From positions 1 through 49,006 of the forward strand of contig CAIVVS010000258.1 of the NCBI GenBank assembly GCA_903909415.1: a DNA stretch of 49,006 nucleotides, in the 5' to 3' direction. This document shows, one piece after another, positions 21,187-46,676 of the stretch. The notes beneath the pieces were generated by a model. It was given only the letters and a program-made list of their open reading frames with translations. It had not been told where the DNA came from and did no database searches. The DNA comes from an uncultured Pseudomonadota bacterium (GTDB lineage: Bacteria; Pseudomonadota; Gammaproteobacteria; Burkholderiales; SG8-39). Position 1 is the first letter of the stretch; each line of letters starts with the position of its first letter. The translations under genes were made by a program, and so were the position numbers.

Positions 21187-23262
21187 ATGGGCGTGCTCGA
21201 AAGCCTGCGCGGCATCACGCGGATCTTCCACCAGCGCGGCAACGCGGAAGCGATCGCCGCCGAACTGGACCGCGCGGTCGCGCTGCACGAAGCCGGCGAC
21301 CTGGACGGCGCGCAAGCCGTCTACCGTGCCATCCTCGGCGTGGTCCCGCGTCACGCGGAAGCCACGCACCTGCTGGGCCTCGTCGCCCACCAGGGCGGCG
21401 ATCATCCCCGGGCGGTCGAACTGATCGAGGCCGCGATACGCGCCGACGGCGCGCGCGGGGTGTTCCACTACAACCTCGGCAACGCGCGCGGCGCGATGGG
21501 CAACGCGATCGGCGCCTCGCAGGCCTACGCGGAGGCGGTGCGGCTCGCGCCCACCCACGCCGCCGCCTGGTTCAACCTCGGCCGCGCACGGCTGGAGATC
21601 GGCCAGGTGGACCTGGCGGAATGGGCCTTCCGGCGCGCGCACGAGAACGACCCGGCCATGTCCATCGCCGCGGTGCAGCTGGCCGCGACCCTGATCGGCC
21701 GCGCCGACGCGCGTTCCAGCGTCGCCCTGCCCGGCGCTTCGCAGGGCGTGGAAGCGCGCCTGGACGAGGCGATCCGCCTGCTCGAGCCGCACTGGCCGCA
21801 CGTGGAGGACCCGCGCTCGGCGCGCGCCAGCCTGGCCGGTGCGCTGGTGACGCGGGAGCGCTTCCCCGAGGCAGTCGGGCACCTCGATGCCCTGCTCGCG
21901 GACACGCCCGATGACGCGATGCTGCACGAGCTGCTGGCCAACTGCCACAACCAGCAGGGCGAGATGGACCTCGCGGTGCGCCACTACCGCGAGGCACTGC
22001 GCATCGAGCCGACGCGCGTGGCGGCCTGGACCAGCATCCTCGGCAGCCTGAACTACTCCGCCACCGCCACGCCGGACGAAGTGGCCGACGCGCACCGTGA
22101 ATGGGGCGTGCAGGCCTCGCGCGGCATCGCGCGCCTGCCGCGCGCGGTGCGCGATGCCAGCCCGGACCGGCCGCTGCGCGTGGCCTACATCTCACCCGAC
22201 TTCCGCCGCCACCCGGTGTCCTACATCTTGGCGCCGGTGCTGGAGCGCCACGATCCTTCGCAGGTGCTGAGCTACTGCTACCACGCGTTCAACGGCGAGG
22301 ACACCTACACCGCGCGGCTGCGCGGCAAGGCCAGCGCCTGGCGCGAGGTCGGCGGCATCGACGACACGGCGCTGGCCGACCTGCTGGTGCGGGACAGGAT
22401 CGACATCGCGGTGGACCTCGCCGGCCACACCACGCACAACCGCCTGCTCGCGCTGGCCCGGCGGCCCGCGCCGGTGCAGGCCTCGTGGCTGGGCTACTTC
22501 AATACCACCGGCCTGCCCGCGATCGACTACTTCATCACCGACCCGCACTGCTCCCCCGCGGACCAGGAACGCTGGTACGTGGAAAAGCTCGCACGCCTTC
22601 CCGCGACGCGCTTCGTCTACGAGCCCTCGGAGTACATGCCCGAACCGAACTCGCTGCCCGCCGGCGCGAACGGCCCCGTCACCTTCGGCTGCCTGAACAA
22701 TGCCGCCAAGCTCAATGACGCCGTGCTCGCCCTCTGGTCGCGCGTGCTCGCCGCGGTGCCGGCTTCGCGCCTGCTGCTGCAGGCCGGCGCGCTGTCCAGC
22801 GACGCCGGCCGCACGCGCATGACCGACCGCCTGCGCCACGCGGGCATCGACACCGCACGGGTCGAACTGCGCCGCTTCGCCACGATCGACCGCGCCGCCT
22901 TCACCTACCACGACGTGGACATCGCGCTGGACCCGTTCCCGTTCTGCGGCGGCATGACCAGCTTCGAGGCACTGTGGATGGGGGTGCCGGTGGTGACCCT
23001 GTCCGGCCCGACCGTCGTGTCGCGCCAGACCCACGCCATGCTGGCCAACCTCGGCATGGACGGGTGCTCCGCCGCCAGCGCCGACGCCTACGTGCAGGCC
23101 GCGGCATCGCTGGCAGCCGACCGGGACAAGCTGTCCACGCTGCGTGCCGGCCTGCGCGCGCGCTTTGCCGCGTCGCCGCTGGCCGACCACGCGGGCTTCA
23201 CCCGCGAACTCGAGGCCCTGTACCGGCGCTTCTGGCACGCGCACCTCGCCTCGCCGGCCTGA
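21187..23262 (+). CDS. TPR-containing GT41 glycosyltransferase (SPINDLY/OGT type), copy 1
   Basis: A 691-residue soluble protein. The N-terminal half (residues 15-290) is made of tetratricopeptide repeats such as ATHLLGLVAHQGGDHPRAVELIEAAI and AAWFNLGRARLEIGQVDLAEWAFRRA, a superhelix that holds protein substrates. The C-terminal half (about 325-685) is the GT41 catalytic region: RPLRVAYISPDFRRHPVSYI, DLAGHTTHNRLLALARRPAPVQ followed by SWLGYFNTTGLPAIDYFITD, then FGCLNNAAKLN and DIALDPFPFCGGMTSFEAL with the sugar-nucleotide-binding residues. Members add a single sugar to Ser/Thr of proteins; the target here is unknown. It is followed four bases later by a second, shorter paralogue. Confidence 0.9.
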   Translation: MGVLESLRGITRIFHQRGNAEAIAAELDRAVALHEAGDLDGAQAVYRAILGVVPRHAEATHLLGLVAHQGGDHPRAVELIEAAIRADGARGVFHYNLGNARGAMGNAIGASQAYAEAVRLAPTHAAAWFNLGRARLEIGQVDLAEWAFRRAHENDPAMSIAAVQLAATLIGRADARSSVALPGASQGVEARLDEAIRLLEPHWPHVEDPRSARASLAGALVTRERFPEAVGHLDALLADTPDDAMLHELLANCHNQQGEMDLAVRHYREALRIEPTRVAAWTSILGSLNYSATATPDEVADAHREWGVQASRGIARLPRAVRDASPDRPLRVAYISPDFRRHPVSYILAPVLERHDPSQVLSYCYHAFNGEDTYTARLRGKASAWREVGGIDDTALADLLVRDRIDIAVDLAGHTTHNRLLALARRPAPVQASWLGYFNTTGLPAIDYFITDPHCSPADQERWYVEKLARLPATRFVYEPSEYMPEPNSLPAGANGPVTFGCLNNAAKLNDAVLALWSRVLAAVPASRLLLQAGALSSDAGRTRMTDRLRHAGIDTARVELRRFATIDRAAFTYHDVDIALDPFPFCGGMTSFEALWMGVPVVTLSGPTVVSRQTHAMLANLGMDGCSAASADAYVQAAASLAADRDKLSTLRAGLRARFAASPLADHAGFTRELEALYRRFWHAHLASPA

Positions 23263-32675: not shown

Positions 32676-35600
32676 CTAGGCGGATTCGCCCGCGGCGTCC
32701 TTGCGCGGTATCCACGCGGCCAGCATCGCCTTGAGTTTCTCCGGGTCCACCGGCTTGCTCAGATAGTCGTCCATGCCGGCTGCGAGGCAGCGCTCGCGGT
32801 CCCCGTCCATGGCATGCGCGGTCAACGCGATCACCGGAATGCGCGCCGGACGGCCCCGCCCGCGAGGGCGGCCCTGCTCGCGCAGTCGCAACTGCTCGGT
32901 AGCCTCTATGCCCCCCATGACCGGCATTTGCACGTCCATCAGCACGAGGTCGAAGCTGTCCGTGGCCAGCGCATCCAGGGCCTCCTTGCCATTTTCGGCC
33001 GTTTTTACTATAAGTCGCTGTTTTTCCAATAGAATTTTCATAAGCCGCTGATTGACTGGATGGTCCTCCACCAGCAACACGCAGCCGCCGACCATCGGCG
33101 CCTCTGGCTGCGCGGCCGCCACTAGGGCTGTCGCGGGCGGCGCATCCTCGCCGCCGACGCGAGCGCCCTCCAGCAGCTTGCGCACGTCTTCCGGCAACAG
33201 CGGCTTACGCAGGACTACAGGCGATGCGCCGGCGATCCCGCTCGTCCAGGCACGCGCGTCGCTGCCCTCGCCCGTGGTCGGAAGCAATAGCGCACACTGC
33301 GCCAGCGGCAGGGCCTGGGCGAGGTCGGCGGCAAGCGTGGCGATTGGCGCCATACCGCTGTTCGCATGCATTGCTCCGCTAAGCAGGACAACGTCATAGC
33401 GCGCGTCCTTTTTGGCCATCAGTTCGCGCGCCCGCGACGGATCGGCCGCTCCATCGATGCGGGCACCCTGCGCGGCGAACAAGCTGCTGGCAAGCGCCAG
33501 TGCCGCAGGATGTGGCTCTATCACCAGCACGCGATGCCCGATGCGGCGCGAAACAGGCTGCATCGCATCGGGTGGCGCCGGCATACGCAGCGTAAACCCA
33601 AAGGTGGTACCCGCCCCCGGTTCGCTGGATACCACCAGTTGCCCGCCCATCATGTCCACTAGCCGCGCGGAAATCGCCAGGCCCAGTCCGGTGCCGCCGA
33701 AGCGCCGCGTGGTCGAGCTGTCGGCCTGCGCGAAGGCGCTGAAGATCAGCTGCTGCTTGTCCTGAGGCACGCCTGGACCCGTATCACGCACCAGGAAGCG
33801 CACCGCGGCCATGCCGCCGGCCAGCGCAAGCAAGTCCACTAGCAGTTCGACCTCGCCCTGCGAGGTGAACTTCACCGCATTGCCCATCAGGTTGATCATC
33901 ACCTGGCGCAGACGCGTCGGGTCGCCGCGCACCCTGGCCGGCACGTCCGGCGCGATGCGCACCAGCAGCTCCAGCCCCTTCTGGTGCGCCTGCAGCGCCA
34001 GCAGACGCACCACCCCGCCGATTTCCTCCAGCAGCGGGAACCCGATGTTCTCCAGTTCCAGCTTACCCGCCTCGATCTTCGAGAAGTCCAGGATGTCATC
34101 GATGATGTGCAGCAGCGCCCGGCCCGAGGAGTTCACCACCTCCAGGTAGTCGCGCTGTTCGCCGGTGAGCCGGGTCTCCAGCGCGAGGCGAGTCATGCCT
34201 AGGATGCCGTTCATCGGCGTGCGGATCTCGTGGCTCATGTTGGCGAGGAACTCGCTCTTGGAGCGGCTCGCATCCTCGGCGACGTCGCGCGCGACCCGGA
34301 TCTGGCGCTCCGCCTCCTTCAGCTCGGTCACGTCAACGAAGGAGACGACCACCCCGCCCACCGTCCCGTCGCCCCGGCGGAATGCAGACTTCTGGTAGAT
34401 CACCTCGCGCAGCGAGCCGTCGGTGCGGTGCACACGCATGTCGTAGCGCACCATCTGCCCGGTGCGCATTGCCTCGTTGTATTGGGCGATGTGACGGTCA
34501 GCATCCTCGCGGCTGTCGAGCATGCTCTGGTCGCGACCAACCACCTCGTCGCGCGCCAAACCGGTGAACTCCTCCCACGCGCGGTTAACCCCGAGGTAAA
34601 GGCCGCGCGGGTCCTTGTAGTACACCGGGATGGGAATAGCCTCTATCAGCTCGCGGTTGAAGCTAAGCTGGTCGGCCAGATCGCGTTGCGCCTCGCGCCG
34701 GGCCAGCGCGCCGCGGAAGGCCAGCATCGTAAACACCACGATGAACCCCTCAAGCAGCAGGCCCAGCAGGACCACGTTGCGGCTGTCGGCGATCCAGGAT
34801 GCGACCGCCTTGGCGCGCGACATGTGAACCATCAACACCAGCGGCATGGTCTTCGAGGTTCTGAATGCGGCGATTGACCCGCCCGGGCCGATGCCGCTGT
34901 CCAAGTAGCTGGCGAACTCGCGCTCGGGCAGGAAATGGCGGAACACCACGTTGTCGCGCAGCAGCGCGCCCGGCGCGATGTCGACGTTGCCGGTTGCGGC
35001 CAGCAGAGTGCCATCATAGGAGGACAGCACCACCGCGTCCTGCGGTTCGCCCAGCGCCAGTTCGTAATAGTTGGCGAAGTAGTCCGGATTCAGCGTCGCG
35101 ACCAGGTAGAGGCGCGTCGCATTGCGCAACTCGATGGTCCGGACCAGGGGGATGACGAACACCCCGGCACGCAGTTCGTCGTTCACGCCTGCTGCAGGCA
35201 GGTCGCGCCCGCGTATGGGTGCGGCGATGCGGGAAGCCCCGGGCAGCGGCAGGCTGCCGAAGGTGCGCTGCACGTCCAGCACCATCGTCATCAGCCCGAG
35301 GTTCGAACTGGCGACTACCGTACCCTGCGCGTCCAACACCGAGACACTGCGAAGGAAAGGCTCGCGGCGGACGACATCGGCCATCCAGCCGGCAAGTGCG
35401 GAATAGGCACGGTCAGGAGTGGGGCTGCTGGTGATCGCATCGGCGGAGATCTTGAGCAGCAGGTCTGCCGAGTTGAATGTGCCAGTTGCATGGTCCTCCA
35501 GCAGCCGTGCAAGCAGCACCGCGTTGCCCTGCTCCCGGTCGAAGGCTTCGTGCCGCTGGTAGTCCACGATGAACGACGTGAACACCGCAACCATCAGCGC

Positions 35601-35726
35601 GAACAGCGCGCCCATGGGCACCACCAAGCCTCCCCGACCAAACGGCCGGCCAAGGAGGCGAAGGCTACGGTCGATTAGGCCTTGAATCCGATCCATATAA
35701 CCGCGAGCGAACTGCAACGCATTCAC
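32676..35726 (-). CDS. Membrane hybrid histidine kinase (Cache-like, PAS, HisKA, HATPase, pseudo-REC, REC)
   Basis: A 1016-residue sensor. A membrane helix (about 33-55) and a second (about 316-338) bracket a roughly 260-residue periplasmic domain with a double-Cache-like look. A PAS domain follows (355-470), then HisKA with His499 in NMSHEIRTP, the ATPase domain (590-715, with NLMGNAVKF and [14 protein letters not shown]), a degenerate receiver (731-855) whose phosphoacceptor position is Ser783, and a complete receiver (881-1005) with Asp931 in LMDVQMP and Lys991. GTG/ATG choice is uncertain: ATG 35726 has GGGG just upstream; ATG 35696 is possible. Codon use is less GC-biased than in the flanking operons, with a sharply AT-rich patch near 33.0 kb. 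It is divergent from the next kinase. Confidence 0.92.
33000..33045. other. AT-rich codon patch inside the receiver domain
   Basis: About 45 bases coding for residues 895-909 ([15 protein letters not shown]) of the hybrid kinase use AAA, ATT, CTA, TTG, ATA and GTA codons and contain two runs of five A, in a gene otherwise dominated by G/C third positions. Confidence 0.75.
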
Positions 35727-35962
35727 CCCGAGCGCGCGCAGGGCTGCGTGACGGAGCCATCTGCCTGTACCGCGCCGCTGGGTACGAGGAAAAAAACCGA
35801 AATCCGGCGGAGAAGCAACTTGGGCATGCGAATCCAGTCATTGCGGCGCATCCCGGCAGCGGGCTTACGGGTGTGGCACGCGTTGGCGCGCCATCGGAGC
35901 GCGCATGCCCTATTGTCGCGCCAATCGCGCCAATCGCGCCAGAGCGAAATACCCTGCTGGAC
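35727..35962. promoter_or_regulatory. Intergenic region between divergent sensor kinases
   Basis: This gap carries a run of seven A near 35790, three tandem TCGCGCCAA units at 35916-35942, and no recognisable gene or strong -35 hexamer. It should hold the control regions of both kinases. Confidence 0.45.
35916..35942. repeat. Three tandem 9-bp units
   Basis: TCGCGCCAA occurs three times in a row (the last copy ends AG). It is about 20 bases upstream of the -10-like TACAAT that precedes the second kinase. Confidence 0.7.
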
Positions 35963-35968
35963 TACAAT
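35963..35968 (+). promoter_or_regulatory. -10-like element close to the kinase start
   Basis: TACAAT lies nine bases before ATG 35978. If it is used, the mRNA would be leaderless or nearly so, which agrees with the lack of any ribosome site before that ATG. No -35 consensus is present. Confidence 0.35.
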
Positions 35969-35977
35969 CGATGTTCC

Positions 35978-38900
35978 ATGGCCAAGATCATTCCTGAGTC
36001 CGACAGCAAAGCTGGAGCCGACCTTCTGCAGTTCGCCCTGGTTGCCGCGAACGTGGTGCCCTGGGAATGGGATTTCGACACGGATTCGCTGCGATGGGCG
36101 CACGACCCCTCGGCCCTGCTCGGGCCACCCGCCGACGGGAAGCCGTGCCACGCGGCCCTGCGCGACCTGGTCCATCTAAATGACCGCGAACAGTTCCTGG
36201 CGATCGGCAGGGCGGCCCGCCAGCGTCCGGGCGACTACCAGATCGAGTTCCGCATCGTTCGCCCAGACGGTCAGGTGCGCTGGCTCATGGCTCACGGAAA
36301 ATCACTCTTCCTGGAGGAATCAAGCCAGGCGACGCCGTCGCTCCGGCTTTTCGGCATCGCACTCGACATCCACGACCGGAAAACGGCGCAAATGGCGACG
36401 GAAGCGCTGCTGCTCCAGCGGGCTGCGCTGCTGGAGAACCTACCCGACGTCGCCTGGATGAAAGACGCGGACGGACGGCTCATCGCCGTCAACCCGGTCT
36501 TCTGCCGGCGCTTCGGCCTGGAATCCGGTCTGGCGGTGGGCCGGACCGACCTGGACATTTTTCCGCCGGACAAGGCGGCGGGCATCCGGGCGGAGGATGA
36601 GGACGTTATGGCCTCGGGTCACGCCCTGCGCTACGAGTCGTCGGGCGTGGTAGGCGGCGAGCGCCGGTGGGTCGAGGTGATCAAGACGCCGATTTTCGAC
36701 CCCGATGGCCGGCCAGTGGGAACGGTGGGGGCCTCGAGGGACATCACTGTTCGGAAGGCGGTTGAGCGGGGTCTGGTCGAATCTGAGCAGCGGTTCCACA
36801 TGCTGGCCGACCTATCATCGGACTGGTACTGGGAACAGGACTCCGACCTCCGGTTCACGCTGGTAACCTCGTCCGAAGGGGCACGCCGTCCGGTGGAGAC
36901 CGGCATCGCGATAGGGAAAACGCGCGAAGAAATGCACCTGGAGGGCCTGGACGAGGCCCAATGGGCTTCGCACCGCGCGAAACTGGCCGCGCGCCAGCCC
37001 TTCAGCGACCTCCAATACTGGATCTCGACCCAGTCGGGCCGCAGGCGGGTGTCGGTGAGCGGCCTGCCGCTGCACGACGAAAGCGGCAATTTCACCGGTT
37101 ATCGCGGCATAGGCCGCGATATCACGGACCAATGGCGTGCAGCCGAAGACCTCCGCCTCGCGCGCGAGCGCCTGACGCTGGCAATGGACGCGTCGCAGCT
37201 GGTGCTCTGGGACGTCGACCTCGACAGTGGACGGGTATGGCTGAGCGAGGCCTGGGCAGGGTTGATTGGCCTTCCTGCCGGTGAAACGCAGACCAACGTG
37301 ACCGACCTGGCGGGACTCGCGCATCCCGACGACCTTCCCGAACTGCTGCGCCTGCAGCGGGAAACCATCAGCGGGCTGCGGGACAGCTATGCCGCCGAGC
37401 ACCGCGTCCGCACCAAGGCCGGGGAATGGCGCTGGATACATTCCCGTGGGCAGGTCACCCAGCGGGACAACAAAGGGCGTGCCCTGCGCATGAGCGGCAC
37501 CAACAGCGACATCACCGTGCGCAAGGCCATGGACGCGGCGCGCTTGGTAATGGAACGCAACCTGCGGATAGCCCTGGCGGAAACCGAAGCGCTCCTGCAG
37601 ACCTCGCCGGTGGCATTGCTCGTGGTGAAAGACCGCGTGATCCTGCGCTGCAACCAGGCCATGGAACGGATGGCAGGCGCCGCCCCGGGCGGACTGGTGG
37701 GCAAGCCCACGCGCGTACTTTACGGCGATGACGAAACCTGGGAGCACCTCGGCAGGAACGCCTACGGATTGATGGCGGAAGGCAAGACTTATCGGGAGGA
37801 ACTGCAGCTGGCCAGGCCCGACGGCACGCGGTACTGGGCCGTAATCGCAGGTTGCCGGCTCTCGGAGGAATCCCAGGAGAGCGTGTTCTCCTTCACCGAC
37901 GTAACCGACCAGCGGGAGACGGCTCAGGCGCTGGCAGTGGCGCGCGACGCCGCCCACGAGGCGAGCAAGGCCAAGAGCGGCTTCCTCGCCACCATGAGCC
38001 ACGAAATCCGCACGCCGATGAACGGCGTGCTGGGCATGCTGGAACTGCTGGAACTCACCGAACTCTCGGGCGAGCAGCGTGACACGCTGACGCTGGCGCA
38101 TGAATCCGCGGTCGCCCTGCTACGCCTGATAGACGACATACTCGACTTCTCCAAGATCGAGGCCGGCCAGCTGGAAATCCGCCCTGAACCGCTCTCCCTG
38201 GCATCTCTGGCGAACCACTCGGCCACGATGTACCTTGAGTTGGCATCCCGCAAGGGCCTGATACTCGAGAGCAACGTTTCGCAGGCGGTGGGTCCGGCGC
38301 ATTTCGCCGACCCGCTCCGTGTTTCCCAGATCATCAACAACCTGCTGTCCAATGCAGTCAAGTTCACCGAGGCCGGCAGGGTGACGCTTACTGTAGACCA
38401 GTTGGATGCCGGGGGGACCGAAAACACCATCTGCATGCGCGTGGCCGACACCGGGATAGGCGTGAACTCGGAGCAACGTGCACGCCTGTTCCAGCCATTC
38501 GTCCAGGGTGACTCCAATACGACCCGCAAGTACGGGGGCACCGGACTGGGGCTGTCGATCTGCAAGCGTCTCGCGGAGATGATGGGAGGCTCCATCGACA
38601 TGGACAGCCAGCCCGGCCGCGGCACAACGATTACCGTGACCCTGCGGCTGCGGCCGGCGGCGGTCGAGGCACCTGCCTCGCGTGGAACGATGCGGGTCGA
38701 GCGCCTGGCCGCGCTGCGTGCGGCCGGCAGGACGAACAGGGAACCAACGGTTCGTGAAGCCGGTCCGCGCCTGCTGATCGTCGAGGACCACCCGGTGAAT
38801 CTCTCGCTGATCCGGCGGCAGGTCAGCCTGCTTGGCTACCAGGCGGACGTGGCGATGGACGGCAACGAAGCACTGGAAAAATGGCTGGAGGGCCGGCACG

Positions 38901-39550
38901 GGCTAGTGCTGACGGACTGCCACATGCCGGTCATGGACGGGTACGAATTGTCCCGCCGCATCCGAGCAGAAGAAGCGCGCCTGGGCGTGACCCGCCCCGT
39001 CCCGGTGATTGCCTGCACGGCAAACGCGATGGCGGGCGATGCGAAGTTGTGTTTCGACGCCGGAATGAGCGACTATCTCTCCAAGCCCGTCACCCTGCCT
39101 GCGCTCAAGGCGAAGCTGGAGCGCTGGGCCCAGGCAGCCCTGCCGCCAGACCAGCCTCCCGACCCCGCCACAAGTACCGGAAACACCGCCATGGAAGCCA
39201 ACGAGCACCAGCATCCCGTCATCGACATCGCCGCACTGGAACAATTCACCCGAGGGGACGAATCCCTTGCGCGTGAAATCTACGGCCAGTTCCTGTCGAC
39301 GACACGCACCGATGGCCGCAACCTCGCGAACGCGGTCGCATCAGGAGACATGGTCACGGTCCAGGCCACGGCCCACCGGATCAAGGGCGCCTGCAGGATG
39401 ATCGGCGCGAATCCGACCGCGGATGCTGCCGAAGCGCTTGAAAAGGCGGGCAAGGAAAACGGGCGCGAAGCGGCGGCGGCGTGCATGCTGCGGTTCGAAC
39501 TGGAGCTGGAACGGCTGTCGGCAGTGCTGGAGCGCCAGGCCCAAACCTGA
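35978..39550 (+). CDS. Cytosolic multi-PAS hybrid histidine kinase with REC and HPt
   Basis: A 1190-residue unorthodox kinase with no membrane segment. Five PAS-type domains are traceable (about 17-135, 145-262, 270-388, 395-516 and 530-650), each ending with a DIT/DVT-type motif such as GASRDIT, GIGRDIT and GTNSDIT. HisKA carries His675 in TMSHEIRTP; the ATPase domain (770-890) has NNLLSNAVKF, DTGIGV and GGTGLGLS. The receiver (930-1050) has Asp980 in LVLTDCHMP. The C-terminal HPt domain (1080-1180) has His1133 in TAHRIKGACRMIGA. A full His-Asp-His relay is therefore present; the final response regulator is not obvious. ATG 35978 is preferred; the frame opens upstream at GTG 35873 across a tandem repeat. 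Codon use is less GC-rich than that of the flanking metabolic genes. Confidence 0.93.
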   Translation: MAKIIPESDSKAGADLLQFALVAANVVPWEWDFDTDSLRWAHDPSALLGPPADGKPCHAALRDLVHLNDREQFLAIGRAARQRPGDYQIEFRIVRPDGQVRWLMAHGKSLFLEESSQATPSLRLFGIALDIHDRKTAQMATEALLLQRAALLENLPDVAWMKDADGRLIAVNPVFCRRFGLESGLAVGRTDLDIFPPDKAAGIRAEDEDVMASGHALRYESSGVVGGERRWVEVIKTPIFDPDGRPVGTVGASRDITVRKAVERGLVESEQRFHMLADLSSDWYWEQDSDLRFTLVTSSEGARRPVETGIAIGKTREEMHLEGLDEAQWASHRAKLAARQPFSDLQYWISTQSGRRRVSVSGLPLHDESGNFTGYRGIGRDITDQWRAAEDLRLARERLTLAMDASQLVLWDVDLDSGRVWLSEAWAGLIGLPAGETQTNVTDLAGLAHPDDLPELLRLQRETISGLRDSYAAEHRVRTKAGEWRWIHSRGQVTQRDNKGRALRMSGTNSDITVRKAMDAARLVMERNLRIALAETEALLQTSPVALLVVKDRVILRCNQAMERMAGAAPGGLVGKPTRVLYGDDETWEHLGRNAYGLMAEGKTYREELQLARPDGTRYWAVIAGCRLSEESQESVFSFTDVTDQRETAQALAVARDAAHEASKAKSGFLATMSHEIRTPMNGVLGMLELLELTELSGEQRDTLTLAHESAVALLRLIDDILDFSKIEAGQLEIRPEPLSLASLANHSATMYLELASRKGLILESNVSQAVGPAHFADPLRVSQIINNLLSNAVKFTEAGRVTLTVDQLDAGGTENTICMRVADTGIGVNSEQRARLFQPFVQGDSNTTRKYGGTGLGLSICKRLAEMMGGSIDMDSQPGRGTTITVTLRLRPAAVEAPASRGTMRVERLAALRAAGRTNREPTVREAGPRLLIVEDHPVNLSLIRRQVSLLGYQADVAMDGNEALEKWLEGRHGLVLTDCHMPVMDGYELSRRIRAEEARLGVTRPVPVIACTANAMAGDAKLCFDAGMSDYLSKPVTLPALKAKLERWAQAALPPDQPPDPATSTGNTAMEANEHQHPVIDIAALEQFTRGDESLAREIYGQFLSTTRTDGRNLANAVASGDMVTVQATAHRIKGACRMIGANPTADAAEALEKAGKENGREAAAACMLRFELELERLSAVLERQAQT

Positions 39551-39635: not shown

Positions 39636-41810
39636 TCAGGCGCGGGGCGCGCCCCCGGGTTCGATCCACTCCTCGCGCACGCCGCTGCCACTTGTGGCGC
39701 GCAGCAGTTCCTCAAACTTCTCCGCCGGCACCGGACGGCTGTAGTAGTAGCCCTGGTGCAGCAGCACGCCGGCGGTGCGCAGGTGCGCGCGCTGCTCGAC
39801 GGTCTCCACGCCCTCGGCAACCACCGACAGCGACAGCGACTTCGCCAGGCCGGAGATCGCCGAGACGATCGCCTCGTCGTCCGCGTCGTCGGCCACATCC
39901 TTGACGAAGGCGCGGTCGATCTTGAGCGTGGTGATGGGCAGGCGCTTGAGGTAGGACAGCGACGAGTACCCGGTGCCGAAGTCGTCGATCGCCACGCGCA
40001 CGCCCATGTCGCGCAGCGACTGCAACACGCGCATGGTCGATTCGGCGAAGTCCATGAGGCCGGTCTCGGTGATCTCCAGGGCCAGGTACTCGGGCTTCAG
40101 TCCCGAGGCGAGCAGCACCTTGCGCACCACCGACACCAGGTCGCGCTGCTGCACATGGTTGGAGGTGACGTTCACGCCGACGTAGAACGGGTCCAGGCCC
40201 GCGTCCTGCCAGGACTTGAGCTGCCGGCAGGCCATCTCCAGCGCCCACTCGCCCATCGGGATCACCAGGCCGGTCTGCTCTGCCAGCGGGATGAAGTCGC
40301 CCGGCGACACCAGCTTGTCGCCGCGCTGCCAGCGCATCAGCACCTCGGAACCGCCGATCTTGCCGGTGTCCACGTTGACGATGGGCTGCCAGTGCAGGAT
40401 CAGCTCGTCGCGCTCCAGCGCCTTGCGCAGGTCGGATTCGAGGCGCAGCTTTTCCACGCTCGGGCCGCCGCCGCTCTCGCTGTAGAAGCGGAACGCGTTG
40501 CGTCCGGCGGCCTTGGCCTCGTACATCGCGGCATCGGCGTGCGCCAGCAGCAGCTCGGCGTTCTCACCGTCACGCGGGAAGCAGGCCACGCCGATACTGC
40601 CCGTCACCCAGCATTCGTTGCCCTCGACCATCACCGGCTTGCCAAGCGATTCGAGGATGCGCTCGGACACCTTGGCGGCGTCCTCGGGCTGCGCGATGTC
40701 CTGCAGCATGATGATGAACTCGTCGCCGCCAAGGCGCGCGACCGAGGCGTTCTCGCCGTCGCGTCCGGCGCGGCCCGCGGTGCGGCCGATGGCGTCGCGG
40801 CTGCGCACCGAGCGGTTCAGGCGCGCGGCCACCTCGCGAAGCAGCGTGTCCCCGGCCGCGTGGCCCAGGGTGTCGTTGATGACCTTGAAGCGGTCGAGGT
40901 CGATGAAAAGCACCGCAAGCGTGGTGTCCTCCCGTCGCGCCTGCACGATGGCTTCCTCGAAACGACTGCGAAACAGGTTGCGGTTGGCAAGGCCAGTGAG
41001 GCTGTCGAAGTTCGCCAGCCGGCGCATGTGTTCCTCGGACTGGCGCCGCTCGGTGACGTCCTGCACCGTGCCGCTGACGGTGATGATGTGGTGGGCGCCC
41101 TCGCGCTCGGCCTCGACCTCGACCTCGATGAAGCGCACCTCCTCGCCCGAGCGCACCTCGCCCGCGACGCGGTGGCTGCGCCCGGTCTTGATGCCGGCGA
41201 GGATCTCGAAGCGGAAGGCGTCCACCCCGTTGGGGTAGAACACGGAAACGAACTGCTCCTCGGGCACGTCCTCCTGCCACTCGGGCAGGCCGAGGATGCG
41301 CAGGCACTCCTTGGAGGCGGACACCGAGCGCGCGGCCACGTCCCATTCCCAGCTGCCCAGGCGCGCGATGCGCTGCGCCTTGGCGAGCTTGGTGCGGCTG
41401 CGGACCAGTTCCTCGCGCATGCGCGAGGTGCGGAGCAGGTAGCGCACCCGCTCCGCCAGCAGGGTCATCTGGGGCGACTTGACAAAAAAGTCGGTGGCGC
41501 CGGACTCGTAGGCGCGGACGATGGACTCGTCGTCGTCCAGGCCGGTCAGCATCACCACCGGCACGTGCTCGCCCTCGGGGCGCGCGCGCAGCTCGCGGCA
41601 GGTCTGGAAGCCGTCCTTGTCCGGCATCATCGCGTCCAGCAAGACTATGTCCGGGCGCTGCTCGCCGAACTTGGCAAGCGCGGCATCGCCGCCGCCCGCG
41701 TCCACCACGTCGAAGCCGCGCTGTTTCAGCGCGGCCTTGACCAGGGTGCGCATGATCGGGTCGTCGTCAACCAGCAGCACCAGGTCCATGGGAGCAGTCG
41801 TCGGCATCAT
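39636..41810 (-). CDS. REC-PAS-GGDEF-EAL cyclic-di-GMP protein
   Basis: A 724-residue regulator of c-di-GMP. The receiver (8-125) has Asp59 in IVLLDAMMPDKDG and Lys111. A PAS domain follows (148-255, ending GTVQDVTERR). The GGDEF domain (264-445) has an intact RLGGDEF (361-365), but about 17 extra residues (AIGRTAGRAGRDGENAS) separate it from the RSRD at 336-339 that would be the product-inhibition site. The EAL domain (455-705) reads EVL at 489-491, with Glu489, the LEITET motif, IDDFGTGYSSL, LKID and AEGVET all intact, so hydrolysis is plausible. Start ATG 41810 is preferred over a TTG 12 codons earlier; ATG 41789 is also possible. It converges with the multi-PAS kinase and is adjacent to the flgL remnant. 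Confidence 0.93.
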   Translation of the reverse strand: MMPTTAPMDLVLLVDDDPIMRTLVKAALKQRGFDVVDAGGGDAALAKFGEQRPDIVLLDAMMPDKDGFQTCRELRARPEGEHVPVVMLTGLDDDESIVRAYESGATDFFVKSPQMTLLAERVRYLLRTSRMREELVRSRTKLAKAQRIARLGSWEWDVAARSVSASKECLRILGLPEWQEDVPEEQFVSVFYPNGVDAFRFEILAGIKTGRSHRVAGEVRSGEEVRFIEVEVEAEREGAHHIITVSGTVQDVTERRQSEEHMRRLANFDSLTGLANRNLFRSRFEEAIVQARREDTTLAVLFIDLDRFKVINDTLGHAAGDTLLREVAARLNRSVRSRDAIGRTAGRAGRDGENASVARLGGDEFIIMLQDIAQPEDAAKVSERILESLGKPVMVEGNECWVTGSIGVACFPRDGENAELLLAHADAAMYEAKAAGRNAFRFYSESGGGPSVEKLRLESDLRKALERDELILHWQPIVNVDTGKIGGSEVLMRWQRGDKLVSPGDFIPLAEQTGLVIPMGEWALEMACRQLKSWQDAGLDPFYVGVNVTSNHVQQRDLVSVVRKVLLASGLKPEYLALEITETGLMDFAESTMRVLQSLRDMGVRVAIDDFGTGYSSLSYLKRLPITTLKIDRAFVKDVADDADDEAIVSAISGLAKSLSLSVVAEGVETVEQRAHLRTAGVLLHQGYYYSRPVPAEKFEELLRATSGSGVREEWIEPGGAPRA

Positions 41811-41941
41811 CGAGAGGCCATTATGCCGTAACGGGGTTGTGCCCAATCGTCAAGGAAGCGGCAGCAAACCCCGCCATTTCAGGGCCTTGCAAGGTTCCAC
41901 GGGGGATCACCTCGAGTCCGGCCCGGATTTTCCTGCTTCGC

Positions 41942-42304
41942 TCAGATCAGGTCGAACAGCGAACGCGTGCCGAGGCTCTTGGCGTAGGCCGGCTGGGCCG
42001 CGGACAGCACCAGCTGGCGCTGCGCCAGGTCGGCGCTGGCCTTCGCGTAGTCCAGGTCGCGCAGGCTGGAGAGCTGTTCCTGGTACTGCACGTCGCGCGC
42101 CTGGTTGGCCCAGGTCAGCGCATCGAGTTCGTTCAGCGCCGAGCCCGCTGCGCCACGCGCGTTGATCGCGCGGTGGGCCGCCTGGCGGAGCTACGCCGTG
42201 ACGCTGGCCATGCCGGCCTGCAGCCGGGCGCGCGAGGCCGAGTCGCCGGCCGGCGTGCGAAGCAGCCCGACCGCTTGGTCCAGCGCCTCGAACACGGTGC
42301 ACGT
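41942..42304 (-). pseudogene. flgL: flgL remnant (flagellar hook-filament junction protein), 3' part
   Basis: Read on the minus strand, the sequence encodes the C-terminal part of the hook-associated protein FlgL: VFEALDQAVGLLRTPAGD, then ARLQAGMASVTA, an in-frame TAG at 42191-42193, then LRQAAHRAINARGAAGSAL, NELDAL, DLDYAKASADLAQRQLVLSA, AAQPAYAKSLGTRSLFDLI and a stop. This matches the C-terminal helices of FlgL, with the DLDYA and SLFDLI features. Homology stops abruptly near 42,300, where sequence of fliR on the other strand begins. About two thirds of the gene is missing and a nonsense codon has been gained, so it cannot make a functional protein. The identification rests on motif recognition. 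Confidence 0.82.
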
Positions 42305-42875
42305 GCGCGCTGTCATCGGCCTCGGCGATCATGGTCCTCGCCCAGCAGATGCTGGTCGGCTACGTGGTCGGCTTCACCGTGCGCCTGGCCTTCGCGGCGG
42401 TGGAACTGGCCGGCGACCTGATCGGCCTGCAGATGGGATTCTCCTTCGCCGGATTCATCGACCCCCAGCACTCGGGCCAGACGCCGCTGCTGGGCAGCTT
42501 CCTAGGCGTGCTCGCCACGCTGATGTTCCTGTCGGTGGGCGGGCTCCTGGCCCTGATCACCTCCATCACCGAAAGCTTCCGCACGGTGCCGGTGGGCACC
42601 GAGTTCATGTCCCTGCTGCGCTGGGAGAAGCTGGTCGTCATGGGCGCGGGCCTGTTCGCCAGCGGCCTGCACATCGCGCTGCAGATGGTCGCCACCCTGA
42701 TGGCGGTGAACCTCGCGCTGGGCGTGATCGCCCGCTCGGCGCCGCAGCTGAACCTGTTCCGGTCGGCTTCCCCATGACCCTGATGCTGGGCCTGATCCTG
42801 CTCGCGCTGCTGCTGCCGTCGCTGGCGATCCCGCTGCGCGCCGCGCTGGAAGCCAGCCTTTCCCAGTTTCCCTGA
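42305..42875 (+). pseudogene. fliR: fliR remnant (flagellar export gate protein), 3' part with frameshift
   Basis: The plus strand encodes the C-terminal two thirds of FliR, an inner-membrane protein of the flagellar type III export gate: MVLAQQMLVGYVVGFTVRLA, FAAVELAGDLIGLQMGFSFAGF, IDPQHSGQTPLLGSFLGVLA, GGLLALITSITESFRTVPVG and NLALGVIARSAPQLNLF. At about 42,760 the frame is lost: after NLF two bases stand where a codon is expected, and VGFPMTLMLGLILLALLLP continues in another frame to the stop at 42875. The N-terminal part is missing and the 5' end abuts the broken 5' end of flgL. No other flagellar gene is in the window. Confidence 0.88.
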
Positions 42876-42976: not shown

Positions 42977-44188
42977 GTGAAGATCGAGCAACGCACGTTC
43001 AAGGGCAGTCCGGACGCCGAGGCGCTGGCGCAGATGGCCGTGATCCGGCCGGGATTGGTGCTGGCGTTCGCCCCGGTGGACCGGATCGCCGATCCCGCGC
43101 TGCATGCGCGACTGCGCGCCGCCTTCGGCGGTGCGGCGCTGATGGGCTGCTCCACCGCAGGCGAGATTTCCGCGCATGGCGTGGATGACGACTCCGTGGT
43201 CGTGACGGCGCTGGCCTTCGATTCCCCGGGCTTTCGCGTCGTGTCCACCACCTTCGATGGCCTCGCGGATTCGCAGGCCGCGGGCGAGCGGCTCGGCCGC
43301 GCGCTGTCGGCGCCCCAGCATGGCGCGGGCGCCACGCCAGACGGCGGCGCGGACGCCGCGCCCGGCGCGCTGCGCGGCGTGCTGGTGTTCGGCCAGGGCG
43401 TGGACATCAACGGCAGCGCGCTGATCGCGGGCGTGATGGGCGCGGTGCCCCGCGGCGTCGCCCTGTCGGGCGGCCTGGCCGGGGACGGCGGCGCCTTCCG
43501 CCAGACCTTCATCCTGGACGACCAGGGCGCCTCCTCGGCACGGATCGTCGCCGCGGGCTTCTATGGCGAGCGCATCCGGCTGGGTCATGGCAGCTACGGC
43601 GGCTGGCGCGCCTTCGGCCCGGCGCGCAAGGTGACGCGCTCGCAGGCCAACATCCTGTACGAGCTCGACGGCAGCCCGGCGCTGGAGGTCTACCGCCGCT
43701 ACCTGGGCGACTACGCCAAGGACCTGCCCGCCTCCGGCCTGCTGTTCCCTTTCTCCATGCTCGACGACAACAAGGCCGAGGCCGGCCTGATCCGCACCAT
43801 CCTCGGCGTGAACGAAACCGACGGCAGCCTGGTGCTGGCCGGCGACGTGGTGCAGGACGGCTACCTGCAGCTGATGCACGCCAGCACCGATTCGCTGGTC
43901 GACGGCGCCTCGGTGGCGGCGGAAGCGGCGGCGGAATCCGCGCCTGCCCCCGGCGGCGACGCCAGCCCGTCGCTCGCGCTGCTGGTGTCCTGCGTCGGCC
44001 GCAAGCTGGTGATGGGCGCGCGCGCGGAGGAAGAGGTCGAAGCGGTGGCGGACGTGCTGGGACACGCGAGCGTGGTCACCGGCTTCTACTCGAACGGCGA
44101 GATCAGCCCGCAGCTGCACTCGGCCGCATGCCGCCTGTACAACCAGACCATGACGATCACGACGCTGCGCGAACTGCCGGCTGCCTGA
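42977..44188 (+). CDS. FIST-domain sensory protein
   Basis: A 403-residue protein with FIST_N (about 25-220) and FIST_C (about 225-375) domains, a sensory module found with kinases, methyl-accepting proteins and GGDEF/EAL proteins and thought to bind small ligands. Family features are the [15 protein letters not shown] segment, [36 protein letters not shown] and the C-terminal [10 protein letters not shown] followed by [13 protein letters not shown]. The start is GTG 42977, with GGAGG eight bases before it; TATGAT at 42918-42923 could be a -10. It is followed by a hybrid kinase 31 bases later, so sensor and kinase are probably cotranscribed and work together. Some FIST proteins affect chemotaxis and virulence regulators, but no ligand can be named here. 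Confidence 0.92.
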
Positions 44189-44219
44189 AGCCGGCGCCGG
44201 ACACAGCAGAGCCGCCGCC

Positions 44220-46676
44220 ATGCCGCGCTCCATGAACTCCAAGCTGCTGCAACGCCAGTTGAAGCGCGCGCTGGGCGTCAGCGGCGAGGGCGCGCTCGAG
44301 GCGCTGCTGTCGGCGCTGGACCGGGCGCTGCAGGAAACCGCAGAGCCGGCGCTGGCCGGCTTGCCCGGGCGCCTGCGGGCGCTGCTGGCGACCGTGGATG
44401 AAGCCTACCTGCAGGCCGACCGGGACCTGGACCTGCGCTCGCGCAGCCTGGAGTTGTCCTCGCTCGAGCTGCTGGAAGCCAATGAGCGCCTGCGCGGCGA
44501 GGCCGAGGTGCAGGCGCGCGCGCTGCGCGCGCTTCGCCAGGCCGCCGAGCAGTTGCTGGACACCCGCGGCACGGAAGGCGCGGCCGTGCCGCAGGCGGAC
44601 GCCCGCGATGCGATCAACACCACGCAGGGAGCGGGCATCGAGGACCTGTCCGGGCTGATGTCGCGGCTGGTGCGCGAGCGGGCCGAGGCGGCCGAGCGCG
44701 TGCGCGTCTCCGAACAGCGGCTGCTGCTGGCGCTGCGCAGCGCGAGTTCCGCGCTGTGGGACTGGGACCTCGAGCGGGACCAGGTCATGGTGGACGACGG
44801 CTGGCACGCGATCTTGGGCTTTCCCGCGGACAGCGCGCCGACCAACCGCGTGCAGTGGGAGGCGATGATCCATCCGGACGACCGCGCGCGCGCGCGCGCC
44901 GCGCTGCGCGAGCACCTGCCACCCGGCACGCCAGACCTCGCCACCGAGTACCGCATGCGCGCCGCCGGCGGGCAGTGGCGCTGGCTCGCCGCGAGCGGAC
45001 GCGTGGTGTCGCGCGGCGCGAACGGCCATGCCCTCCGCATGGTCGGCACGCTGCGCGACATCACGGGCCAGAAGGCGGCCGAAGTGGAACTGCTGCGCGC
45101 CAAGGACGCCGCCGAGGCCGCCAGCCGCAGCAAGGGCGACTTCCTCGCCAGCGTCAGCCACGAGATCCGCACGCCGATGAACGGCATCATCGGCGTCACC
45201 GCCCTGCTGCTGGAGACCGAGCTGCGCCCGGAACAGTCGCAGTATGTGGACATCATCCGCAGCTCGGCCGATTCGCTGCTCGCCATCCTGAACGACATCC
45301 TGGATTTCTCCAAGATCGAGGCCGGCAAGATGGCCTTCGAGAACATCGACTTCCCGCTGCGCGACCTGCTGGCCGACACGCTGCGCGCGCTCGCGCTGCG
45401 TGCCCACCAGAAGGGGCTGGAGCTGGCCTACAGCGTGCCCGAGGACCTGCCCGACGTGTGGCACGGCGACCCGAGCCGGCTGCGCCAGGTGCTGGTGAAC
45501 CTCGTGGGCAACGCGGTGAAGTTCACCGACACGGGCGACATCGAGGTCACGGTCGCCCGCGCATCCGAGCCCTCCGACCACGGCCTGCTGCGCTTCACCG
45601 TGCGCGACACCGGGCCGGGCCTGACCGACGCGCAGCGCGAGCACCTGTTCGAGGCCTTCGCGCAGGCCGACCAGACCATCGCGCGGCGCTTCGGCGGCAC
45701 CGGCCTCGGACTGGCGATATCGCGCCGGCTGGTGGAACTCATGGGCGGGCGCATCGACGTCGACAGCACGCCGGACGTCGGCTCCAGCTTCAGTTTCACC
45801 GCCGCGCTGCAGCCGGTGGGCCCGGGCGAGGCCGAGCCCGCCGCGCTCTACGGGATGCTGGACGGGATTTCCGTGGTCCTTGCCGACGACAACCCGATGT
45901 CACTGGGCCTGGCGACCGATGCGCTCGCGCACGCGGGCGTGGGGGTGCTGGCCGCCAGGGACCGCGCGCAGGTGCTGTCCCTGGCGCAGGCACGGCCCGC
46001 CGCCGCGGTGATCGACGTGCACTTCGGCGAGGAGGACGGCATCGCGCTCGCCGCGCTGCTGATGGAGCGCCATCCCGGCCTGCCGGTGATTGCGCTCACC
46101 AGCGCCGGCCAGCTGGCGCGCGACGTGCGCCGCGCGGACCGCGCTGGCTGCGCCGCCACCCTGGCCAAGCCGGTGTCGGCGCGAGACCTGCGCGCCGCGC
46201 TGGGCCAGGCGCTGTCCGGCACGGGCAAGCCGTCCGATCCGGGGCGTGCCTCCCAAGCGCGCGCCGCGGCGGCACGCGCCACAGACGGCCTGCGCGTGCT
46301 GCTGGCGGAGGACAACCCGGTCAACGTCCTGCTCGCGCGCAAGGTGCTGGTGAACAGCGGCCACAAGGTCATGGTCGCCGAGAACGGACGCGACGCGGTC
46401 GAGATGTGGGCCACCAACCCCGTCGACGTGATCCTGATGGACGTCCAGATGCCGGAGATGGACGGCCTGAGCGCGACCCGGGAGATCCGGTTGCGCGAAC
46501 GCGCGCTGGCCGACGCGCCGCACGTGCCCATCGTGGCCATCACCGCCAACGCGATGGAAGGCGACCGGGAGCGCTGCCTGGAGGCCGGCATGGACGACTA
46601 CTTGTCCAAGCCGTTCACGCCCACGGAACTGCGCGCGGTGCTCGAGCGCATCCGGCCTGCGGCGCACGGGACCTGA
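44220..46676 (+). CDS. Cytosolic hybrid histidine kinase (coiled coil, PAS, HisKA, HATPase, REC-REC)
   Basis: An 818-residue kinase without membrane segments. The N-terminal 165 residues are helical with coiled-coil character ([36 protein letters not shown]). A PAS domain spans about 166-285, HisKA has His314 in SVSHEIRTP, and the ATPase domain (405-530) has [14 protein letters not shown] and GGTGLGLAI. Two receivers follow: REC1 (550-665) with Asp599 in AAVIDVHFG and Lys650, and REC2 (690-812) with Asp741 in LMDVQMP and Lys797. No HPt is attached. It starts 31 bases after the FIST gene, so FIST is the probable input module. ATG 44220 is taken, but ATG 44232 is equally possible. Confidence 0.92.

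What the first reader, a model, noticed from the sequence alone, without database searches (positions are those of the whole stretch)
41942..42875. Head-to-head broken flgL and fliR: scar of a flagellar cluster deletion
The 3' portion of flgL (minus strand) meets the 3' portion of fliR (plus strand) near 42,300, both lacking their 5' parts. flgL and fliR are commonly the last genes of the flg and fli operons, and when the two operons are arranged back to back one deletion between them leaves precisely these two tails. Each tail also has an independent inactivating lesion (TAG at 42191; a one-base loss near 42,760), so both appear to be decaying. This suggests that the lineage lost its flagella in a single event while keeping signalling genes beside the scar.
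Basis: partly seen in the sequence, partly recalled or inferred. Interest (0 to 1): 0.78.

Follow-up and report, generated by a model that had tools for sequence, protein, structure and literature searches.

The report
Deletion scar of a flagellar cluster
Two leftover gene ends, from the two outer edges of a flagellum gene cluster, sit joined back to back in a bacterial DNA fragment, most likely the mark of one large deletion of swimming genes; such losses are a known kind of event, but here the scar can be compared with intact relatives.

Summary
At 41,942-42,298 (minus) lie the last ~118 codons of flgL, broken by an in-frame TAG; at 42,307-42,875 (plus) lie the last 189 codons of fliR, with a frame change near 42,760. 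Their lost 5' sides face each other across about 8 bases. An unnamed relative has an intact fliR (253 aa, 93%) on a 32,709-base contig; the best relative of the next gene, FIST (96%), is on a contig of the same length; an intact flgL (403 aa, 83%) is on an 85,229-base contig. The fliR fragment is listed on 5 contigs, which argues against a one-off misassembly. Of 35 FliR-positive genomes, 14 have both genes on one contig: 8 divergent, 40-47 kb apart, 6 convergent; in the nearest family 4 divergent, 6 convergent. In divergent G434 the interval holds most of the regulon (flhDC, motAB, cheZ, flhFAB, fliC, fliD, many flg and fli genes), and flgL is followed by the same receiver-GGDEF-EAL gene as in the window. 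One deletion between flgL and fliR explains this best. Loss of all flagella is untested: no genome is held.

The parts
39636..41846 (-). Intact receiver-GGDEF-EAL gene (ORF; true start probably a little inside), the gene that follows flgL; left border of the scar
   Evidence: Pfam Response_reg, GGDEF, EAL; full-length ortholog next to flgL in 6 of 16 flgL flanks examined: 3 in the window's orientation (G434, G405, G455) and 3 reversed (G180, G142, G102)
41942..42298 (-). flgL remnant: last ~118 codons, with an in-frame TAG at 42,193-42,191
   Evidence: TIGR02550 2.6e-15 at the profile's C-terminal end; 83% identity to intact P0242; limits
42299..42306 (.). Deletion junction: about 8 bases assigned to neither gene
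   Evidence: Protein-level limits of the two similarities; may be off by a few bases
42307..42875 (+). fliR remnant: residues 65-253 of the intact relative, with a frame change near 42,760
   Evidence: PF01311 7.2e-41, TIGR01400 4.7e-37; 93% to intact 253-aa P0122; limits
42977..44188 (+). Intact FIST-domain gene, right border of the scar
   Evidence: PF08495 and PF10442; P0001 96% identical, on a contig of 32,709 bases, the length of the contig with intact fliR P0122
44220..46676 (+). Hybrid histidine kinase (PAS, HisKA, HATPase, two receiver stretches) directly after FIST
   Evidence: Pfam
35873..39550 (+). PAS hybrid histidine kinase with C-terminal Hpt (start uncertain), convergent with the EAL gene
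   Evidence: Pfam; Hpt sequence related to its C-terminus lies near and convergent with the EAL ortholog in G433, G438 and G452
32676..35726 (-). Further PAS hybrid histidine kinase
   Evidence: Pfam

Best explanation
The lineage carried a flagellar cluster with the flg genes reading left and ending in flgL, followed by an EAL-type response regulator, and the fli genes reading right and ending in fliR, followed by FIST and a hybrid kinase. A deletion of about 40-47 kb (size inferred from relatives) with endpoints inside flgL (near codon 286) and inside fliR (near codon 65) removed everything between and joined the two surviving 3' tails 5' side to 5' side. With nothing left to assemble, both tails then picked up inactivating lesions. 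Shown: identity of the tails, their lesions, intact copies in relatives, the divergent layout and cluster content in relatives, and the shared neighbour beside flgL. Inferred: that a single event did it, its size in this lineage, and that the cell is now without flagella.
For: Tails are the C-terminal ends of FlgL and FliR. Intact 253-aa FliR at 93% and FIST at 96%, both on contigs of 32,709 bases; intact FlgL at 83%. Divergent flgL/fliR in 8 of 14 same-contig genomes: G434, G157, G428, G429, G185, G180, G074, G136; of the 10 in the nearest family G434 has the highest FliR score. In G434, 29 of 30 scanned frames in the interval (30 of 42 listed) are flgK, flgG, flgF, flgE, flgC, flgM, flhF, flhA, flhB, cheZ, a receiver, motB, motA, flhC, flhD, fliC, flaG, fliD, fliS, ycgR, fliF-fliI, fliL-fliP. 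flgL then EAL in the window's orientation in G434 (57% over 728 aa), G405 and G455 (54%). Of 29 other G434 proteins searched against the window only the receiver gives hits, to receiver domains of two kinase/EAL genes. Decay: 7 of 151 fliR codons differ from P0122; at 5 of 7 one residue of the pair is in 2% or fewer of ~118 homologs, against 121 of 611 differences in 39 control pairs, none of which reaches 5/7; 2 of 7 hit sites at least 95% conserved, against 5 of 611.
Against: No genome is held for the window, so total loss is untested. In the nearest family convergent layouts outnumber divergent ones, 6 to 4. FIST had no match at 1e-40 in 98 family genomes and none beside fliR in the loci searched, so the right border rests only on two equal contig lengths. 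Intact flgL is on a different contig from intact fliR and may be from another organism. Of the six family genomes with a full-length EAL ortholog at 54% or more, three have it beside flgL and three do not. Seven differing codons are few for a decay test, and their sites are no more conserved than average.
Confidence: 0.85

Rival explanations
1. Misassembly: two flagellar contig ends were wrongly joined in a metagenome assembly and the genome is in fact flagellated.
For: The window looks like a whole metagenome contig (a contig of 49,006 bases is listed for its own fragment) and no reads can be seen.
Against: The same 148-aa fliR fragment, with its out-of-frame end, is listed as one sequence on 5 contigs (they may come from related samples). 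Both genes carry further lesions, and fliR unusual changes at conserved sites, which a misjoin of intact genes would not give.
Confidence: 0.06
2. Stepwise loss: several smaller deletions, or inactivation first and deletion later, ended with the two outermost tails.
For: Relative G438 shows a smaller event at the same border: a 91-residue frame next to EAL that starts like FlgK and (by eye) ends like FlgL, with no FlgL found by TIGR02550. FliR has no match at 1e-10 in 73 of 98 family genomes (completeness not told).
Against: No leftover of 29 other cluster proteins is found in the window, receiver domains apart. Third-position GC in the tails is still 0.92-0.96 and identity to intact copies is 83-93%, which leaves little time.
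Confidence: 0.2
3. The fragments are leftovers of one of two flagellar systems and the cell still swims with the other.
For: G404, G428 and G429 carry a second FliR at 35-36% to P0122 and extra FlgL hits. G433 and G438 keep only a distant FliR (35-38%), with distant FlhB, FliN, FliO and FliP beside it.
Against: Nothing of a second set is in the window; the rest of the genome is unseen.
Confidence: 0.2

Closest known systems
Flagellar gene loss in Pseudomonadota (PMC13063649; passages seen)
   Same: Loss of flagellar genes in this phylum, with relaxed constraint on what remains
   Different: That survey ties loss mainly to genome erosion and drift and states that it uses no synteny and cannot tell complete systems from remnants; here the junction itself is seen
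Degenerative flagellar evolution in Actinobacteria (PMC10746217; passages seen)
   Same: Loss of whole flagellar sets; flagellar pseudogenes are scored
   Different: Other phylum; presence and absence of genes, not a deletion junction, in the passages seen
NosP-NosK-NosR nitric-oxide signalling (PMC12570481; passages seen)
   Same: A FIST-domain gene next to a histidine kinase, with a c-di-GMP response regulator nearby
   Different: Not tested here for heme or nitric oxide; here the regulator belongs to the flgL side and the FIST gene to the fliR side of the lost cluster

Membership tests
flgL pseudogene | Similarity to the FlgL C-terminus | tested here: met
   TIGR02550 2.6e-15 at 307-387/387, below the whole-protein cut-off; 83% to P0242; Pfam Flagellin_C only 0.012
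flgL pseudogene | Lacks the 5' part and is interrupted | tested here: met
   Similarity stops near 42,298; in-frame TAG at 42,193-42,191
fliR pseudogene | Similarity to FliR rather than the injectisome SctT | tested here: met
   TIGR01400 4.7e-37 against TIGR01401 1.4e-20, the first below its whole-protein cut-off
fliR pseudogene | Lacks the 5' part and is interrupted | tested here: met
   Starts at residue 65 of P0122; frame change near 42,760
Deletion scar of a divergent flg/fli cluster | Relatives carry the two genes divergently with the cluster between | tested here: met
   8 of 14 same-contig genomes, 4 of 10 in the nearest family; gene content checked in one, G434
Deletion scar of a divergent flg/fli cluster | Same flanking genes in an intact relative | tested here: inconclusive
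   Left: EAL beside flgL in 6 of 16 flanks, 3 in the same orientation. Right: fliR and FIST on contigs of equal length only
Deletion scar of a divergent flg/fli cluster | Reads span the junction | not testable with these tools
   No reads; the fragment's 5 contigs are a weak substitute
Non-flagellated lineage | No flagellar genes elsewhere in the genome | not testable with these tools
   No whole genome held
NosP-NosK pair | Heme-binding FIST protein that controls its kinase | not tested
   Only domains and adjacency seen

The most novel reading that the evidence does not exclude
In this family the flagellar cluster is lost again and again at the same border beside a conserved EAL regulator, and in this lineage the deletion also brought a FIST sensor and its hybrid kinase to within about 1.1 kb of that regulator, so a former motility switch may have been re-used as a sessile, surface-only c-di-GMP module.
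Probability: 0.1. Interest if true: 0.5.

Novelty: new member of a known kind. Interest (0 to 1): 0.33.

Why it matters
Loss of flagella is usually read from gene presence and absence. Here both endpoints, the flanks and intact relatives can be compared, so the steps of the loss (a large deletion, then decay of the tails) become visible, and the family seems to offer further losses at the same border to compare.

Tried and rejected
The flgL pieces given, and the two window rows of the alignment, were out of frame; what these say about flgL is discarded. The convergent layout (6 of 14) was considered as ancestor and rejected: a simple deletion there cannot join the two tails by their 5' sides. 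The genome-contig scan gave 5 loci, FliR at 39-45% only. FIST gave no match at 1e-40 in 98 family genomes and none in 5 others. Two second-set pairs on one contig (G428 C7, G429 C4; both genes on the same strand) were left out of the layout count of 14. The decay control counted the control proteins themselves; one search repeats it without them (20% in place of 14% rare changes), and the report uses. Short repeats at the junction could not be tested because the relative's DNA was not reached. Literature: four searches (listings of 15, 15, 10 and 5 papers seen) and passages of three papers showed no description of this scar; that is no proof of absence.

Full report
Observation. In the flgL frame (minus strand) the stretch from 42,190 to 41,942 gives 82 residues ending in ...SLFDLI and matches TIGR02550 at 2.6e-15, profile positions 307-387 of 387. 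Together with the part upstream of the in-frame TAG (42,193-42,191) it matches an intact 403-aa FlgL (P0242) at 83% identity. On the plus strand, 42,307-42,759 and, in a second frame, 42,762-42,875 match FliR; residues 65-253 of an intact 253-aa FliR (P0122) are covered. The lost 5' parts face each other over 42,299-42,306. My first uses of the flgL pieces were out of frame (two rows of 41) and are withdrawn.

Is it real DNA? The 148-aa fliR fragment is listed as one member sequence on 5 contigs, longest 49,006 bases, the window's length. That argues against a one-off misjoin, although the contigs may come from related samples. The tails keep coding-like third-position GC (0.92-0.96), so decay is young. 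Of 151 fliR codons compared with P0122, 7 differ. At 5 of the 7 one residue of the pair occurs in at most 2% of about 118 homologs, against 121 of 611 differences (20%) in 39 control pairs of 85-98% identity, and no control pair reaches that share; 2 of 7 fall at sites at least 95% conserved, against 5 of 611. The mean conservation of the 7 sites equals that of all sites (0.54 and 0.54), as expected without selection. With 7 sites this is suggestive only.

Intact relatives. The best FIST relative (P0001, 96%) and the best full-length FliR relative (P0122, 93%) are each listed on one contig of 32,709 bases; equal length to the base makes one and the same contig likely. The best FlgL relative is on a contig of 85,229 bases and may or may not be the same organism. 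If it is as it seems, the loss is younger than the split from that relative. No whole genome is held for the window. By DNA of the isc genes (named from recall) the nearest genome in a draw of 399 from the order of Ramlibacter alkalitolerans was G148, 83%; in G148's family of 98, 11 genomes match the whole 4.5-kb stretch at 74-77%. The family is not named by the tools.

Layout. FliR was located, FlgL in 35 FliR-positive genomes: all 25 of the nearest family, 6 of G157's family, 3 of G142's family, and G136. In 14 the primary genes share a contig: 8 divergent with outward 3' ends (G434 40.2 kb apart, G185 41.3, G074 42.5, G428 44.4, G429 45.4, G136 about 45.6, G157 46.2, G180 46.6) and 6 convergent with 0.5-2.8 kb between (G444, G420, G417, G333, G404, G421). 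In 15 the genes are on different contigs and in 6 FlgL was not found. Ten of the 14 are in the nearest family: 4 divergent (G434, G185, G428, G429) and 6 convergent; the one with the highest FliR score to P0122 is divergent G434. Only the divergent layout yields this scar by simple deletion.

What was lost. In G434 one search lists 42 frames between flgL and fliR, some of them surely false; I scanned 30. Assigned: flgK, flgG, flgF, flgE, flgC, flgM, flhF, flhA, flhB (9 of 10); cheZ, a receiver (cheY by place), motB, motA, flhC, flhD, fliC, flaG, fliD, fliS (10 of 10); ycgR, fliF, fliG, fliH, fliI (by place), fliL, fliM, fliN, fliO, fliP (10 of 10). FlgI and FlgJ sequence can be read there by eye. 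One deletion between the two genes would thus take the master regulator, export gate, motor and filament genes. With 31 G434 proteins as queries, the window gives flgL, fliR and two receiver-domain hits of cheY.

Borders. The window's receiver-GGDEF-EAL gene begins about 100 bases after flgL. A full-length ortholog lies next to flgL in 6 of 16 flgL flanks: co-directional as in the window in G434 (57%), G405 (54%) and G455 (54%, about 0.9 kb away), reversed in G180, G142 and G102 (48-49%); two of the 16 flanks (G488, G493) end within 0.8 kb of flgL. FIST was found beside fliR in none of the loci searched, many of which hold only 1.5 kb of flank.

Repeated loss. FliR matches at 1e-10 in 25 of 98 genomes of the nearest family and in 2 of the 11 nearest (G488, G420); the isc query rang in 98 of 98, but completeness is not told, so absence is weak evidence genome by genome. 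The EAL protein was then sought in the same 98: 48 match at 1e-120, most over the GGDEF-EAL part only. Six have it full length or nearly so at 54-70%: G434, G405, G455 beside flgL, and three not. In G433 (70%) it lies beside a caspase-like gene (below cut-off) with no FlgL detected; in G438 (58%) beside a 91-residue frame that begins like FlgK (TIGR02492 4.4e-18) and, by eye, ends like FlgL, an apparently independent deletion; in G452 (59%) at the end of what looks like a chemotaxis cluster. G433 and G438 keep a more distant FliR (35-38%, TIGR01400 above cut-off) with distant FlhB, FliN, FliO and FliP beside it, so they may own a second system, as G404, G428 and G429 seem to. That is why I do not claim that the window's lineage is non-motile.

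Signalling genes. FIST and the following hybrid kinase resemble NosP-NosK pairs, which are often encoded with a c-di-GMP response regulator (PMC12570481, passages). Heme binding was not tested. On the model, the EAL regulator and the FIST gene once stood at opposite ends of the cluster; now they are about 1.1 kb apart.

Verdict. It is a clean instance of a known kind of event.

Noticed in passing
L157:12759-13034 (genome G438): A 91-residue frame next to the EAL ortholog starts like FlgK and, by eye, ends like FlgL: an apparently independent deletion at the same border.
   Followed up: partly
L156:7514-8124 (G433), L157:7935-8249 (G438), L158:14292-14648 (G452): Hpt sequence (in G433 also receiver sequence) related to the C-terminus of the window's kinase at 35,873-39,550 lies near and convergent with the EAL ortholog in all three.
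   Followed up: partly
42977-46676: FIST gene and hybrid histidine kinase about 30 bases apart, resembling a nitric-oxide-sensing NosP-NosK pair.
   Followed up: partly
42299-42306: The bases at the junction read as the perfect palindrome GCACGTGC; may be chance.
   Followed up: no
genomes G404, G428, G429: A second, distant FliR in each, with extra FlgL hits, suggests a second flagellar system in some relatives.
   Followed up: no
21187-23262: TPR protein with a glycosyltransferase family 41 domain.
   Followed up: no
L158 (genome G452): The EAL ortholog sits at the end of what looks like a chemotaxis cluster (cheY/A/W/R/D/B-like frames, named by eye).
   Followed up: no
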